Positions 370 through 37,126 of a DNA stretch of 37,126 bases are shown here, piece after piece; positions within the stretch are counted from its first letter, which is position 1, and each line of letters begins with the position of its first letter. Made by a program: the position numbers and the translations under genes. The stretch covers positions 1-37,126 of the forward strand of contig JAGCUV010000024.1 of the NCBI GenBank assembly GCA_017962705.1. The letters are read 5' to 3'. The notes under the pieces were generated by a model. It worked only from the letters and a program-made list of their open reading frames with translations. It made no database searches and was not told where the DNA came from. This DNA comes from Bacteroidales bacterium (GTDB lineage Bacteria > Bacteroidota > Bacteroidia > Bacteroidales > UBA932).

Positions 370-437
370 GAGCCGAAAGGGGTGATTTTTGAGCCGATTC
401 GTCAATTTTTGAGCCGATTTGCTAAAAATTGAGCCGA
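370..437 (+). promoter_or_regulatory. Four phased GAGCCGA direct repeats
   Basis: The heptamer GAGCCGA occurs at 370-376, 391-397, 411-417 and 431-437, each copy preceded by an AT-rich run of As and Ts (ATTTTT or AAAATT type). The start-to-start spacing is 21, 20 and 20 bases, about two helical turns, so all copies face the same side of the DNA. The last copy ends four bases before the -33 TTG of the promoter of the downstream ATPase gene. The placement suggests an operator array for that gene. Binding of the product's own N-terminal winged-helix domain is possible but unproven. Confidence 0.7.
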
Positions 438-441
438 TTTC

Positions 442-472
442 TTGTTTTTTGCTCGCTGTTTTTCTATATTTG
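442..472 (+). promoter_or_regulatory. Promoter of the AAA-ATPase/nuclease gene
   Basis: TTG at 442-444 and TATATTTG at 465-472 are separated by 20 bases, matching the Bacteroidota -33/-7 consensus (TTG...TAnnTTTG). Transcription should begin near 478-480, about ten bases before the ATG at 489. This argues against the longer in-frame start at 429, which would lie upstream of the promoter. Confidence 0.65.
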
Positions 473-488
473 CCGCAAAATATCAGAT

Positions 489-2249
489 ATGGAAGTAGAA
501 AATATCGTTGACTACATCTGGAACAACCCCTATTCATCCCGTGAAGAGATACAGCGAGGAACAGGTTTTCCCGGAAGCGCCTCATCGCTGAAACGACTTC
601 TCGCAGAAGCGCTGAATGCCGGCGAAATTGTTGCCGAAGGTCGTGGGCGCGCGACACGCTATGTTCCCATTAAGTACCCGGCCGGAATCCAGACCTTTGA
701 GAAAATCCGCAATGAAGCATATTTGTATGTGGATAAGACGGATTTGGTGTATTCCTTGGCTAATAGCGGCTCTTCCTATGTGTTTCTAAGCCGTCCTCGC
801 CGTTTTGGAAAATCGCTGCTTATCAGCACGCTGATGGCTTACTTTGAGGGGAAAAGTGAACTTTTCAAGGGGCTTGCTATTGAAAAGCGTGAGAAATCGT
901 GGACGAATTATCCGGTTGTGCGTCTGGATTTGAGCACGGCCGGAGACGCGTTGGACAAAGACCAGTTGTACCTGAAATTGGGAAACATCCTTGAAGAGAA
1001 TGAGGAGCGGTTGGACTTGTCACGAAATGAGACACTGCCCGGAGAGCGCTTGAGTTCGCTGATCCGGCGCGCGCATGAAAAGTTTAATCAGAAGGTTGTT
1101 ATCCTGATTGACGAATATGACGCACCACTGCTGGGAGCCATCTTTGATGAGGAAATATCCGCGGTGTTCAAGGCCATTGTAAAAGAGTTGTTTTCTCCGC
1201 TCAAGAAGTTGGAACCCATTCTTCAATTCGTATTCTTGACGGGAATCACCAAATTCAGCCAAATGAGCATATTCAGCACTTTGAATAATTTGAATGATAT
1301 CTCTTTGGATGACAAATACGCCGCTCTCTGCGGTTTTACAGAAACTGAAATGAACGATTCTTTTGGGCCGAGTCTTAAGATTCTGTCCAATAAATTAGGC
1401 GTTTCCTTGGAAGATGCATCCGTGCAGATCAAGCGGAAATATGATGGCTATCACTTCGGACCGGCCTGTGTGGATGTATATAACCCGTTCAGCGTACTGA
1501 AGGTTTTCTCCAAAATGCAGATTTCCGATTTCTGGTTTGCGTCCGGAACGCCTACTCTTTTGTTTGAATCGTTGAGGCGATTCCATACTCATCTATATGA
1601 CATTGACGGAGTTGAGGTTTCTGCCTCCGTTTTCAATCAACCTACGGAGTCGATTACCAGTGCAATTCCTTTGTTCTACCAAAGCGGCTATCTGACGCTT
1701 AAGTCGTACAGCCCGGATACCGACACATATGTCCTTGCTATTCCGAACGCAGAGGTGAGGTCCGGTTTGATGGACAATCTTTTGCCTTCGGTTGCCGGTC
1801 AAAGTGCTGTTGAGACGCAAAATGTGGCGATACGCTTTAAGAGAGCTCTCATGGATAACAATTTAGACCAGGCGCTCAATGTGTTGAAAGGTTTCTTTGC
1901 GTCCATTCCTTATCCCGAGTTCGGGAAAGACGCTTTGGATACTTTTGAGAAAAAGGAAGCATATTTCAAGCGGCTCTTCTATGTTGTCTTTTCGTTTATG
2001 AATGTTCAAATTTACACGGAAATAATGAATAGCGAGGGCCGGATGGATGCCTTGATGTATCTGGGTGATACAGTCTACATTATAGAAGCAAAACTTGATT
2101 CTTCTGCGGATGAAGCGCTGGCTCAGATTCAGCAAAAGGGCTATGCCGTCCGTTTTGCCGGAACGGGAAAAACGGTCATTGGACTTGGGTTGAATTTTTC
2201 CTCAAAGACCCGTACCATCGAAGCGTGGAAATATCACACAATGGAATAA
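489..2249 (+). CDS. Winged-helix / AAA-ATPase-like / PD-(D/E)XK nuclease-family protein
   Basis: This 586-aa protein belongs to the AAA-ATPase_like (PF09820) plus PDDEXK_9 (PF08011) family, which is abundant and poorly understood in Bacteroidota. Visible parts: a winged-helix-like segment (residues 1-60); the family P-loop SRPRRFGKSLL (about 101-111); Walker B VILIDEYDAP (about 204-213); and a C-terminal nuclease-type core with GRMD (Asp about 520) and IIEAK (Glu 533, Lys 535), that is D...ExK. No signal peptide or membrane segment is seen, so it should be cytoplasmic. The start at 489 is chosen because a promoter sits at 442-472; the in-frame ATG at 429 precedes it. The gene stands alone, converging on the HTCS gene with 42 bases between stops. 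Phased repeats upstream suggest its own regulation. Function is unknown; nucleic-acid cleavage or mobile-element defence is possible, but nothing here proves it. Confidence 0.85.
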   Translation: MEVENIVDYIWNNPYSSREEIQRGTGFPGSASSLKRLLAEALNAGEIVAEGRGRATRYVPIKYPAGIQTFEKIRNEAYLYVDKTDLVYSLANSGSSYVFLSRPRRFGKSLLISTLMAYFEGKSELFKGLAIEKREKSWTNYPVVRLDLSTAGDALDKDQLYLKLGNILEENEERLDLSRNETLPGERLSSLIRRAHEKFNQKVVILIDEYDAPLLGAIFDEEISAVFKAIVKELFSPLKKLEPILQFVFLTGITKFSQMSIFSTLNNLNDISLDDKYAALCGFTETEMNDSFGPSLKILSNKLGVSLEDASVQIKRKYDGYHFGPACVDVYNPFSVLKVFSKMQISDFWFASGTPTLLFESLRRFHTHLYDIDGVEVSASVFNQPTESITSAIPLFYQSGYLTLKSYSPDTDTYVLAIPNAEVRSGLMDNLLPSVAGQSAVETQNVAIRFKRALMDNNLDQALNVLKGFFASIPYPEFGKDALDTFEKKEAYFKRLFYVVFSFMNVQIYTEIMNSEGRMDALMYLGDTVYIIEAKLDSSADEALAQIQQKGYAVRFAGTGKTVIGLGLNFSSKTRTIEAWKYHTME

Positions 2250-35801: not shown

Positions 35802-35900
35802 ATGACCGCCAGAGAAGAATTCAGTCAACTGTATAATTCCGACCGAATGTTGGCATTTGTCTGCAAGATTCTCGTCTTGCTTGGCAAATTTGGTTCATGA
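35802..35900 (+). pseudogene. 32-aa ORF, possible remnant of an ECF sigma factor gene
   Basis: ATG 35802 to TGA 35900 encodes a short protein beginning MTAREEFSQLYNSDRMLAFV and ending LLGKFGS. The run EEFSQLY...RMLAFV recalls the start of region 2 in Bacteroidota ECF sigma factors (F-x-x-LY...R-x-L-x-F), but the rest of such a gene is absent, and very AT-rich sequence follows. A clear -7 element and palindromes precede it. It could be the truncated 5' end of a sigma gene at an insertion boundary, or an independent small protein. The sigma likeness is weak. Confidence 0.3.
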
Positions 35901-35924: not shown

Positions 35925-35955
35925 TTTGTAATTACAAGAATTGTTTTTAAATTTG
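35925..35955 (+). promoter_or_regulatory. Promoter of the SecB-containing three-gene cassette
   Basis: TTTG (35925-35928) and TAAATTTG (35948-35955) are 19 bases apart, a full match to the Bacteroidota -33/-7 consensus. Transcription should begin near 35962, giving a leader of about 50 bases to the ATG at 36013. No gene lies between 35901 and 36012; the stretch is about three-quarters A+T. Confidence 0.7.
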
Positions 35956-36012
35956 TAAACCATTTTTAGCCAATTTATGGCTATTTTGTTAGTTATTAAT
36001 GAGTTAAAGATT

Positions 36013-36225
36013 ATGGCAGATTTGGTTCAAGAGCTTTTAGCTTATTTGGCAATGACTCCCAGGGACCAGAAAATTAAGGAGTGGGAGGCCTTATCGATTT
36101 TTGACGAATGTGGCCCCGGGGTCTTTGACTATCTGGACGCGATCTCGGAAAGAGTTCCAGTAATTGAAATTTCTAACAGACAATTGAATCCAGAGTTCAC
36201 TCTGGATTCTTCTTTTTCATTATAG
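36013..36225 (+). CDS. Small protein (70 aa), first gene of SecB cassette, possible antitoxin
   Basis: The protein starts MADLVQELLAYLAMTPRDQ and continues through KIKEWEALSIFDECGPGVFDYLDAI to a short C-terminus (VIEISNRQLNPEFTLDSSFSL). It appears helical in its first 50 residues, with no DNA-binding motif I can recognise. An in-frame ATG at 35977 would add 12 hydrophobic residues; the later start is preferred, without strong evidence. It is followed after five bases by a SecB-like gene. In known toxin-antitoxin-chaperone modules the antitoxin carries a C-terminal segment that makes it depend on the SecB-like chaperone; the short C-terminal tail here could serve that way. A terminator-like hairpin lies inside its 3' end. 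The antitoxin role rests on context alone. Confidence 0.65.
   Translation: MADLVQELLAYLAMTPRDQKIKEWEALSIFDECGPGVFDYLDAISERVPVIEISNRQLNPEFTLDSSFSL
36186..36215 (+). terminator. Terminator-like hairpin within the 3' end of the small gene (attenuator candidate)
   Basis: GAATCCAGAG (36186-36195) and CTCTGGATTC (36200-36209) form a perfect 10-bp stem with a TTCA loop, followed by TTCTTTTT (36208-36215). The structure ends ten bases before the stop codon at 36223-36225. A ribosome translating the gene to its end would cover the stem, so downstream expression could depend on translation. Confidence 0.65.
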
Positions 36226-36230
36226 TATTT

Positions 36231-36644
36231 ATGGAAGCAGCACGGTTCTCTTTAGTTGATTATCATTTTGACAAGGTTATTCTTAACCTTGATATGTTGA
36301 GGCAAGATTCTTCTTTTGATATCAAATTCAGTCCATCAGGCATCTTCATCTCTAAGACAAAGGAATATATTCTGACTTTTTTGTTTACTGCCGGCTATGA
36401 CGGAAGTAATGAAGAATCTATTATTTCTGTGAGATGTCAAGCTAAATATGTATTCAAGGGGGTCTCTTCGTTTGAGGAGATTCCGCCATTCTTCTACAAC
36501 AATGCTATTGCAATCTTGTTCCCTTATGTCCGTTCTTTTATCAGTACGATAACTCTTCAAGCAAATATTCAACCTCTATTGTTGCCAACATTAAATTTGT
36601 CTGATCTTCAAGACATTCTCAAAAAGAATACAACAGAACAGTAG
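36231..36644 (+). CDS. SecB-like chaperone
   Basis: This 137-aa protein matches the SecB family (PF02556). It begins with a strand like those of SecB-like proteins (FSLVDYHFDKVILNL). Its second half carries the family core: NNAIAILFPYVRSFISTIT (about 90-108, with FPYVR at 97-101) and then PLLLPTLNLSDL (about 115-126), equivalent to the FPYxR and P-x-LxLPPINF regions of SecB. Canonical SecB keeps preproteins unfolded for export; solitary SecB-like proteins such as Rv1957 of Mycobacterium tuberculosis instead stabilise an antitoxin in toxin-antitoxin-chaperone modules. Here the gene is sandwiched between two small genes (gaps of 5 and 7 bases) and not next to secretion genes, so the second role is more likely. 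Its base composition is clearly AT-richer than the PUL. Confidence 0.85.
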   Translation: MEAARFSLVDYHFDKVILNLDMLRQDSSFDIKFSPSGIFISKTKEYILTFLFTAGYDGSNEESIISVRCQAKYVFKGVSSFEEIPPFFYNNAIAILFPYVRSFISTITLQANIQPLLLPTLNLSDLQDILKKNTTEQ

Positions 36645-36651
36645 TGGTAGG

Positions 36652-37005
36652 ATGCCTCGTAAGATTCTTTTTCAAACTGTTGATGATAGAGATAATCCCG
36701 ATGCCGTGCTTCGGGACGCCCCTTTTAAGTGTGATATCGCTCGTGATCCATGGTTAGGAGAGGGTTATTATTTCTGGGATACTTTTATTGAATTAGCACA
36801 TTGGTGGGGTAGGAAGGGATATTTTGGTCGTTATATGATCCTCCAGAAAATAGTTGATTATTCGTATGAGGATTTTTTTGATTTAGTTGGGAATACCGAA
36901 CATATATGTGTGTTGGAGAGATGTTCAACTATTTTATCAAAAGAGTTTGGACAGAAGAATCCTACTGTTGCAAAAGTAATAGAATTGCTGCTCTCGAAAA
37001 AGTAG
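36652..37005 (+). CDS. Small protein with GxGYYFW motif, possible toxin (ADP-ribosyltransferase-like?)
   Basis: This 117-aa protein starts MPRKILFQTVDDRDNPDAV. Residues 34-52 read WLGEGYYFWDTFIELAHWW. That layout, a G-x-G-aromatic-aromatic strand followed after some ten residues by A-x-W-W, resembles the 'GxGFYLT...A..WA' region of DUF3990-type and other ADP-ribosyltransferase-fold proteins, in which it helps bind NAD. The rest (IVDYSYEDFFDLVGNTEHICVLERC) does not let me name a catalytic residue, and at 117 aa it may be short for such a fold. Being third in an operon with a SecB-like chaperone makes a toxin role plausible. It could equally be a non-toxic member of an uncharacterised Bacteroidota family. 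The start follows the SecB-like stop by seven bases (GTGGTAGG before the ATG). Confidence 0.6.
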   Translation: MPRKILFQTVDDRDNPDAVLRDAPFKCDIARDPWLGEGYYFWDTFIELAHWWGRKGYFGRYMILQKIVDYSYEDFFDLVGNTEHICVLERCSTILSKEFGQKNPTVAKVIELLLSKK

Positions 37006-37037
37006 ACACGGAAGGGTAGAAAAAGATTGAAAGTTTG

Positions 37038-37045
37038 TACCTTTG
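37038..37045 (+). promoter_or_regulatory. -7 element upstream of the terminal structured region
   Basis: TACCTTTG (37038-37045) matches TAnnTTTG exactly. No convincing -33 TTG is placed 19-21 bases upstream. Transcription would begin near 37051, exactly where the sequence turns GC-rich. Confidence 0.45.
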
Positions 37046-37050
37046 TTTGA

Positions 37051-37126
37051 GCGCCCACGGAGGCGGTTATCCTCGGCAGGACGAGGAGAGCCCTTTCCTG
37101 GAGCTCCCCGCAGGCCTGACGGGAGA
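37051..37126 (+). ncRNA. Possible structured non-coding RNA, cut by window end
   Basis: After very AT-rich sequence, the last 76 bases become GC-rich and full of complementary blocks: CCTCG/CGAGG (37071-37075 with 37082-37086), CCCG/CGGG (37107-37110 with 37120-37123), and the palindrome CAGGCCTG (37111-37118). A -7 element sits just upstream. No long reading frame is evident. I could not match it to tmRNA, RNase P RNA or SRP RNA; it may instead be the start of an unrelated gene leader. Confidence 0.3.

What the first reader, a model, noticed from the sequence alone, without database searches (positions are those of the whole stretch)
35925..37005. SecB-containing three-gene cassette: candidate toxin-antitoxin-chaperone-like system with a new toxin type
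A full-consensus promoter drives three tightly spaced genes: a 70-aa protein, a SecB-like chaperone (FPYVR, PLLLPTLNL) and a 117-aa protein with WLGEGYYFW...AHWW. Established knowledge: solitary SecB-like proteins protect antitoxins in tripartite modules (HigB1-HigA1-Rv1957). Here the gene order differs, the first protein has no visible HTH, and the third is not a RelE/HigB-type RNase but weakly resembles ADP-ribosyltransferase-fold proteins. The AT-rich composition and position at the edge of a PUL suit a mobile defence-like cassette. This is my best candidate for an undescribed system.
Basis: partly seen in the sequence, partly recalled or inferred. Interest (0 to 1): 0.85.

Follow-up and report, generated by a model that had tools for sequence, protein, structure and literature searches.

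The report
Broken phage-defence toxin-antitoxin-chaperone operon
The three genes are a Bacteroidota version of an already described anti-phage toxin-antitoxin-chaperone system (CmdTAC), and in this genome the toxin gene has been cut in two by a jumping DNA element, so the '117-residue protein' is a truncated remnant rather than a new toxin.

Summary
The three genes are real, but the system is not new. The SecB-like protein (PADLOC PD-T4-9_C, E 4e-50) and the third protein (PD-T4-9_A, E 6.5e-41) belong to CmdTAC, published in 2022 and 2024; the 70-aa protein is its antitoxin CmdA. The third gene is not a 117-aa protein: it is the first 111 codons of cmdT, interrupted at 36986 by the left end of a multi-copy mobile element that supplies the last six codons and the stop. 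The rest of cmdT lies on contig C83 of the same genome, beside the element's other end, with a matching 3-bp duplication. The toxin here is probably dead; cmdA and cmdC are intact. Mildly new is the subtype: in 102 related loci the chaperone gene precedes the toxin in 77 (published order T-A-C); of the 74 of those readable, 72 have Gln where the published triad has His; 58 of 75 have a CmdA tail without the AA end.

The parts
35802..35900 (+). 5' fragment of a 155-aa accessory gene ('gene X') whose full copy lies after the toxin's second part on contig C83; left boundary of the acquired cassette (inferred)
   Evidence: Codons 1-30 are 80% identical to gene X on C83; reading frame
35926..35955 (+). 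Bacteroidota-type promoter (TTG-N19-TAAATTTG)
   Evidence: Pattern scan, 2 such matches on the + strand of the window
36013..36225 (+). cmdA, antitoxin, 70 aa, tail NPEFTLDSSFSL
   Evidence: Model of 68 relatives' CmdA (nearest left out): E 9.4e-15, next best of 663 open stretches E 2.5; PADLOC PD-T4-9_B only E 0.015
36231..36644 (+). cmdC, SecB-like chaperone, 137 aa
36652..36985 (+). first part of cmdT (111 codons and one base); the rest of the gene is on contig C83
   Evidence: PADLOC PD-T4-9_A E 6.5e-41, profile 1-114 of 187; 49% identical to residues 1-96 of L087
36983..36985 (+). AAT, left copy of the 3-bp target duplication of the mobile element (right copy at the element's other end on C83)
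36986..37126 (+). left end of a multi-copy mobile element (TGCTGCTCTCG...); supplies the last six codons and TAG stop of the '117-aa' ORF; contig ends inside it
   Evidence: Same sequence ends contigs C103, C24 and C63 of this genome at 99-100% identity, flanks different

Best explanation
This is a CmdTAC (PD-T4-9) locus of the Bacteroidota A-C-T branch, carried on a short AT-rich acquired segment next to a polysaccharide-utilisation locus, with its toxin gene split by a mobile element. In an intact relative the likely working is as follows. CmdC, a SecB-like tetramer, holds the disordered tail of CmdA. CmdA with CmdC keeps CmdT folded but silent. A phage structural protein draws CmdC away, CmdA is degraded, and CmdT ADP-ribosylates mRNA and stops translation in the infected cell. 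Shown here: family membership of all three proteins by sequence models, SecB fold of CmdC (one chain modelled, not the tetramer), ART fold of the nearest full-length CmdT relative, and the interruption of this cmdT. Inferred from the published E. coli system: tetramer, trigger, antitoxin degradation and mRNA modification. Inferred for this copy: the first 111 residues lack about 40% of the protein, including the last five predicted strands and the likely position of the third catalytic residue, so the toxin is inactive and the intact cmdA-cmdC pair gives no defence by itself.
Confidence: 0.9

Rival explanations
1. The 117-aa protein is a genuine short toxin, complete as it stands, and the module is a working variant with a minimal effector.
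For: It is an open frame in an operon with good spacing and promoter.
Against: Codons 112-117 and the stop are element sequence shared with three other contigs. 96 of 102 relatives have a toxin frame of 150 aa or more that is not cut by a contig edge. The missing part is found elsewhere in the genome beside the element's other end.
Confidence: 0.03
2. The element is present only in part of the population, or the contig pairing is an assembly accident, so an uninterrupted cmdT exists in most cells and the system works.
For: The genome is a draft in many contigs, and the four contigs with the left end all end inside the element, as expected for a collapsed repeat.
Against: The two junctions carry a matching 3-bp duplication, as do two other left/right pairs of the same element; no further, uninterrupted cmdT copy was found in the genome, which is 79.6% complete.
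Confidence: 0.12
3. A different, undescribed toxin-antitoxin-chaperone system.
For: Gene order A-C-T, the His to Gln change and the CmdA tail differ from the published type.
Against: Toxin and chaperone both match PD-T4-9 models, and a T-A-C type Acinetobacter toxin and chaperone match the same model pairs, with the other member of each pair ranked first. On the toxin tree the two gene orders need only 2 changes among rows with a known order.
Confidence: 0.04
4. After loss of the toxin, cmdA and cmdC are kept for another job, such as neutralising CmdT of incoming mobile elements (anti-addiction).
For: cmdA and cmdC are open here and in three relatives whose toxin frame is broken (L054, L111, L131). 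Toxin loss with retained antitoxin is tolerated, the reverse is not (general knowledge of toxin-antitoxin modules).
Against: Recent breakage alone explains intact neighbours. Two relatives show the opposite, an open toxin with a damaged chaperone gene (L086, L102).
Confidence: 0.12

Closest known systems
CmdTAC / PD-T4-9 of E. coli ECOR22
   Same: ART-fold toxin, small variable antitoxin, SecB-like chaperone in one operon; toxin and chaperone match the PADLOC models; a known phage-defence system (PMC9519451, PMC11618068)
   Different: Order A-C-T instead of T-A-C; first triad residue Gln instead of His; CmdA tail ends NPEF...SSFSL instead of LAA; this copy's toxin gene is interrupted
HigB1-HigA1-Rv1957 and other classical TAC modules
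   Same: SecB-like chaperone of the same fold as Rv1957 and an antitoxin that presumably depends on it
   Different: Toxin is of the CmdT family with ART fold, not a RelE/HigB RNase; no HTH in the 70-aa antitoxin found by Pfam
RES-type ART toxins (MbcT, ParT, NatT)
   Same: ART fold; nearest solved structures to the modelled relative
   Different: Those pair with Xre-type antitoxins and have no chaperone gene (recalled); no Pfam RES match in 40 relatives

Membership tests
CmdTAC / PD-T4-9 | CmdT homologue by sequence model | tested here: met
   PDLC04068 E 6.5e-41, PDLC04069 E 3.5e-12, first 114-116 profile positions; second part on C83, PDLC04068 E 1.3e-15, positions 111-183
CmdTAC / PD-T4-9 | SecB-like CmdC within two genes of CmdT (criterion of PMC11618068, section 34, read) | tested here: met
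   Adjacent, 7 bp apart; PDLC04072 E 4.1e-50
CmdTAC / PD-T4-9 | Small variable antitoxin gene in the operon | tested here: met
   CmdA model E 9.4e-15 for the 70-aa ORF with the nearest relative left out
CmdTAC / PD-T4-9 | Order toxin, downstream ORF, SecB-like gene (criterion of the 2022 survey, PMC9519451 section 22) | tested here: not met
   Order here is A-C-T; chaperone before toxin in 77 of 102 relatives, after it in 19. The 2024 criterion does not ask for order, so I file the locus as a variant
CmdTAC / PD-T4-9 | HY-[E,D,Q] catalytic triad as described in PMC11618068 | tested here: not met
   Q8 instead of His, Tyr present in the GYYFW motif; the third position is not in this ORF (C83 part reads IQIC). 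Gln is also found in 7 of 19 T-before-C relatives, so it does not mark a separate family
CmdTAC / PD-T4-9 | CmdA ending in LAA-type ClpXP signal | tested here: not met
   Ends SSFSL; AA end in 17 of 75 C-before-T and 11 of 18 T-before-C relatives
CmdTAC / PD-T4-9 | ART fold of the toxin | tested here: met
CmdTAC / PD-T4-9 | Uninterrupted toxin gene | tested here: not met
   Mobile element end at 36986
CmdTAC / PD-T4-9 | mRNA ADP-ribosylation and phage protection | not testable with these tools
   Needs experiment
Classical TAC (HigBA-SecB type) | SecB-like chaperone | tested here: met
   Best PDB fold match is Rv1957 with a HigA1 tail peptide, Foldseek E 1.8e-6
Classical TAC (HigBA-SecB type) | RelE/HigB-type RNase toxin and HTH antitoxin | tested here: not met
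   No such Pfam match for either protein; the toxin matches the CmdT models

The most novel reading that the evidence does not exclude
The A-C-T loci of Bacteroidota form a functionally distinct CmdTAC subtype. Antitoxin and chaperone are made before the toxin. The toxin uses a Gln-Tyr-Gln instead of a His-Tyr-[E/D/Q] active site, which may change its chemistry or its RNA target. The antitoxin often ends in a conserved hydrophobic tail (NPxF..[DG]FF) that would serve as chaperone-binding and decay signal in place of the LAA-type ClpXP tag.
Probability: 0.3. Interest if true: 0.55.

Novelty: new variant of a known kind. Interest (0 to 1): 0.33.

Why it matters
As a locus it is an ordinary broken defence module, and that explains away a high-scoring candidate. 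Its relatives matter more. They show that most of the CmdTAC-type loci reached from this toxin (77 of 102) have the chaperone before the toxin, nearly always with Gln for the catalytic His, and mostly with an antitoxin tail that lacks the published degradation signal. These three points can be tested directly in laboratory strains and bear on how an RNA-targeting ART can work without the canonical His and how chaperone-addicted antitoxins are destroyed in Bacteroidota.

Tried and rejected
Rejected: a short native toxin (the element end explains the stop). A structured RNA or intron at the contig end: Rfam on L001, L028 and L016 gave four matches, the best at E 0.16 and all below the gathering score. 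A solved CmdT structure: the PDB sequence search with 40 toxins gave one unrelated match at E 0.12, and with six CmdC none at 0.01. A Pfam family for the toxin: 40 relatives scanned, no family matched by more than one. Interior of the mobile element: one short pattern at its edge found nothing in the genome. Similar ends in other genomes were found (6 of 247 genomes for the left end, 11 of 393 for the right, own genome counted). Of seven such loci whose genes I listed, five lie near an ATPase of the AAA_14/DUF4143 kind (L155, L157, L163, L164 by Pfam, L165 by eye) and two do not (L156, L166); L164 also has an HTH/IstA-like gene. No complete copy was found, so the element's family stays open. 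A recurring YbjN partner for CmdT (seen once, L141): the viral scan found only the same contig.

Limits of the counts. Of the 28 loci of other genomes that one search gave, only the eight strongest (L003-L010) are among the 102; of the weaker ones I read four by eye (L012, L013, L017, L018), and all four have the order T-A-C and His, so the 102 lean towards the window's own branch. The 102 were selected by a toxin pattern from seven Bacteroidota toxins, and one search kept only 80 of 158 confirmed relatives. In the first-residue count three C-before-T rows were unreadable. For the tree, rows shorter than 150 aa, with X, unreadable at the first residue or identical were dropped (91 rows left, the window's first part included). 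The association of order with Gln is phylogenetic: only one or two independent pairs exist. The tail motif was written after looking at the sequences: it occurs in 42 of 59 non-AA C-before-T tails (window included), 0 of 17 AA-ending C-before-T tails and 0 of 18 T-before-C tails. Of 96 loci with a chaperone gene, 93 had a CmdA candidate, and some of these starts or picks are probably wrong (L110 for one).

Full report
Observation. The window is a whole contig, C105 of a draft genome (2.14 Mb, 146 contigs, 79.6% complete). A promoter of Bacteroidota type lies at 35926-35955. The segment has 37.6% GC against 55% in window 1-35637, lower than any of 694 windows of the same length. Upstream is a polysaccharide-utilisation locus.

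What the proteins are. The second protein matches PADLOC PD-T4-9_C over its whole length (E 4.1e-50) and the third matches PD-T4-9_A (E 6.5e-41), but only the first 114 of 187 profile positions; frames of relatives run to about 165-210 aa. PD-T4-9 is CmdTAC: toxin CmdT, antitoxin CmdA, SecB-like chaperone CmdC, found in E. coli in 2022 (PMC9519451: passages and section 22 read) and explained in 2024 (PMC11618068: abstract, sections 6, 12, 34 and 41 (part 1 of 2), and passages read). In that work the phage capsid protein draws CmdC away, CmdA is degraded, and CmdT ADP-ribosylates mRNA; CmdT alone is not toxic, CmdT with CmdA is. An ART-antitoxin-SecB trio was also mentioned in 2020 (PMC7159879, passage). 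The 70-aa protein matches PADLOC's antitoxin model only at E 0.015, but a model of 68 CmdA sequences from relatives, the nearest left out, finds it at E 9.4e-15, with the next best of 663 open stretches at E 2.5.

The toxin gene is interrupted. The stretch from 37006 to the contig end recurs at the ends of C103 and C24 (121 of 121 bases at 99-100%) and C63 (99 bases). Compared by eye, the four contigs share TGCTGCTCTCGAAAAAGTAGACACGG... from window 36986 on, and the bases just before it differ. The same genome holds the missing part of cmdT on C83 (profile 111-183, E 1.3e-15). It begins just after another repeat end...CGCGGTACA, shared with C127 and C73. The bases next to the ends pair as 3-bp duplications: AAT for C105/C83, GTC for C63/C127, GAA for C103/C73; C24 has no partner among the right ends found. 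By plain arithmetic, three right ends that each match one of four left ends would arise by chance about twice in 10,000 (equal base use assumed). The two parts of cmdT, searched apart, each have L087 as best of 102 relatives (49% and 54% identity). L087's chaperone is also the closest to this one of the 28 aligned with it (63%). The part left in the window aligns to L087 up to residue 96, with 13 residues more, and so stops before the last five predicted strands of L087 (122-126 to 175-178), which hold the Gln at the likely third triad position (the assignment of that position is inferred from the alignment). I conclude that this toxin is inactive.

How the cassette got there. Upstream of cmdA lie the first 30 codons of a gene whose full 155-aa copy follows the second part of cmdT on C83 (80% identical). 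None of the 58 other genomes of the family sampled has it at E 0.001. The cassette thus sits between a fragment and a full copy of this accessory gene, which suggests arrival by recombination at it (inference).

The subtype. 102 related loci were classified: the eight strongest of the 28 loci that one search gave from other same-order genomes (25 of 393 genomes had a match, own genome counted), 80 kept of 158 confirmed in GTDB genomes and 14 from viral contigs. The chaperone gene precedes the toxin in 77, follows it in 19, and is absent in 6. Of the six, three are at contig edges, two hold chaperone remnants, and one (L141) has none. At the position of the published triad's His, C-before-T loci have Gln in 72 and His in 2 (3 unreadable); T-before-C loci have His in 11, Gln in 7 and Asn in 1; the loci without chaperone have Gln in 4 and His in 2. 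Four of the weaker loci read by eye all have T-A-C order and His. CmdA ends in AA in 17 of 75 C-before-T and 11 of 18 T-before-C loci. A proteobacterial example on an Acinetobacter plasmid has order T-A-C, His, and a FAA tail. On a tree of 91 toxins the window's first part pairs with L087 (99/89), and the two orders need 2 changes among rows with a known order, so order and Gln are inherited together rather than independently linked.

Is the subtype in print? The 2022 survey required the order toxin, ORF, chaperone, so it would have left this branch out; the 2024 survey did not require order. Seven text searches showed no title or abstract opening that describes the A-C-T order or the Gln triad; one search listed 20 of 37 papers and one search listed 8 of 9, and most were seen as listings only. 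Figures are not held, so the published homologue drawings could show the order. PADLOC's models already cover this branch. I therefore call it a variant of a known kind, and this copy a broken one.

Score. As a candidate new system the finding falls. As a pointer to a common, little-noticed CmdTAC branch with a changed active site it keeps modest interest.

Noticed in passing
window 36986-37126; contig C83 end; L155, L156, L157, L163, L164, L165, L166: Mobile element with TG...CA ends, repeated TGTCTACTT motifs and 3-bp target duplications. End-like sequences in other same-order genomes lie near AAA_14/DUF4143-type ATPase genes in five of seven loci looked at (four by Pfam, L165 by eye; not L156 or L166), with an HTH/IstA-like gene in L164. 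Interior and family unresolved.
   Followed up: partly
window 35802-35900 and L040 8019-8486: Fragment and full copy of an accessory gene (MSAREEFNQLYNSDRM...) flank the cmd cassette; no PADLOC, PHROGs or Pfam match, not in 58 other family genomes.
   Followed up: partly
L054, L111, L131: Toxin frame broken by a stop (L054) or a frame change (L111, L131) in relatives too, with cmdA and cmdC open.
   Followed up: partly
L086, L102: Open toxin but chaperone gene reduced to a remnant.
   Followed up: no
L016 1501-1659 (G224, same family): Isolated C-terminal cmdT relic with a stop (profile 131-181, E 1.1e-6), with an HTH/rve integrase-core gene about 0.7 kb away.
   Followed up: no
L141 4986-6495 (viral contig): CmdT and a CmdA-like gene followed by a YbjN-family protein (PF10722 E 1.1e-6) instead of a SecB-like gene; seen once.
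   Followed up: partly
L085 and L086: Closely similar toxins in a Clostridia MAG and an Alistipes MAG (sister rows on short branches): transfer between phyla or a binning error.
   Followed up: no
window 429-2249: AAA-ATPase_like plus PDDEXK_9 protein at the other end of the contig, before the PUL.
   Followed up: no
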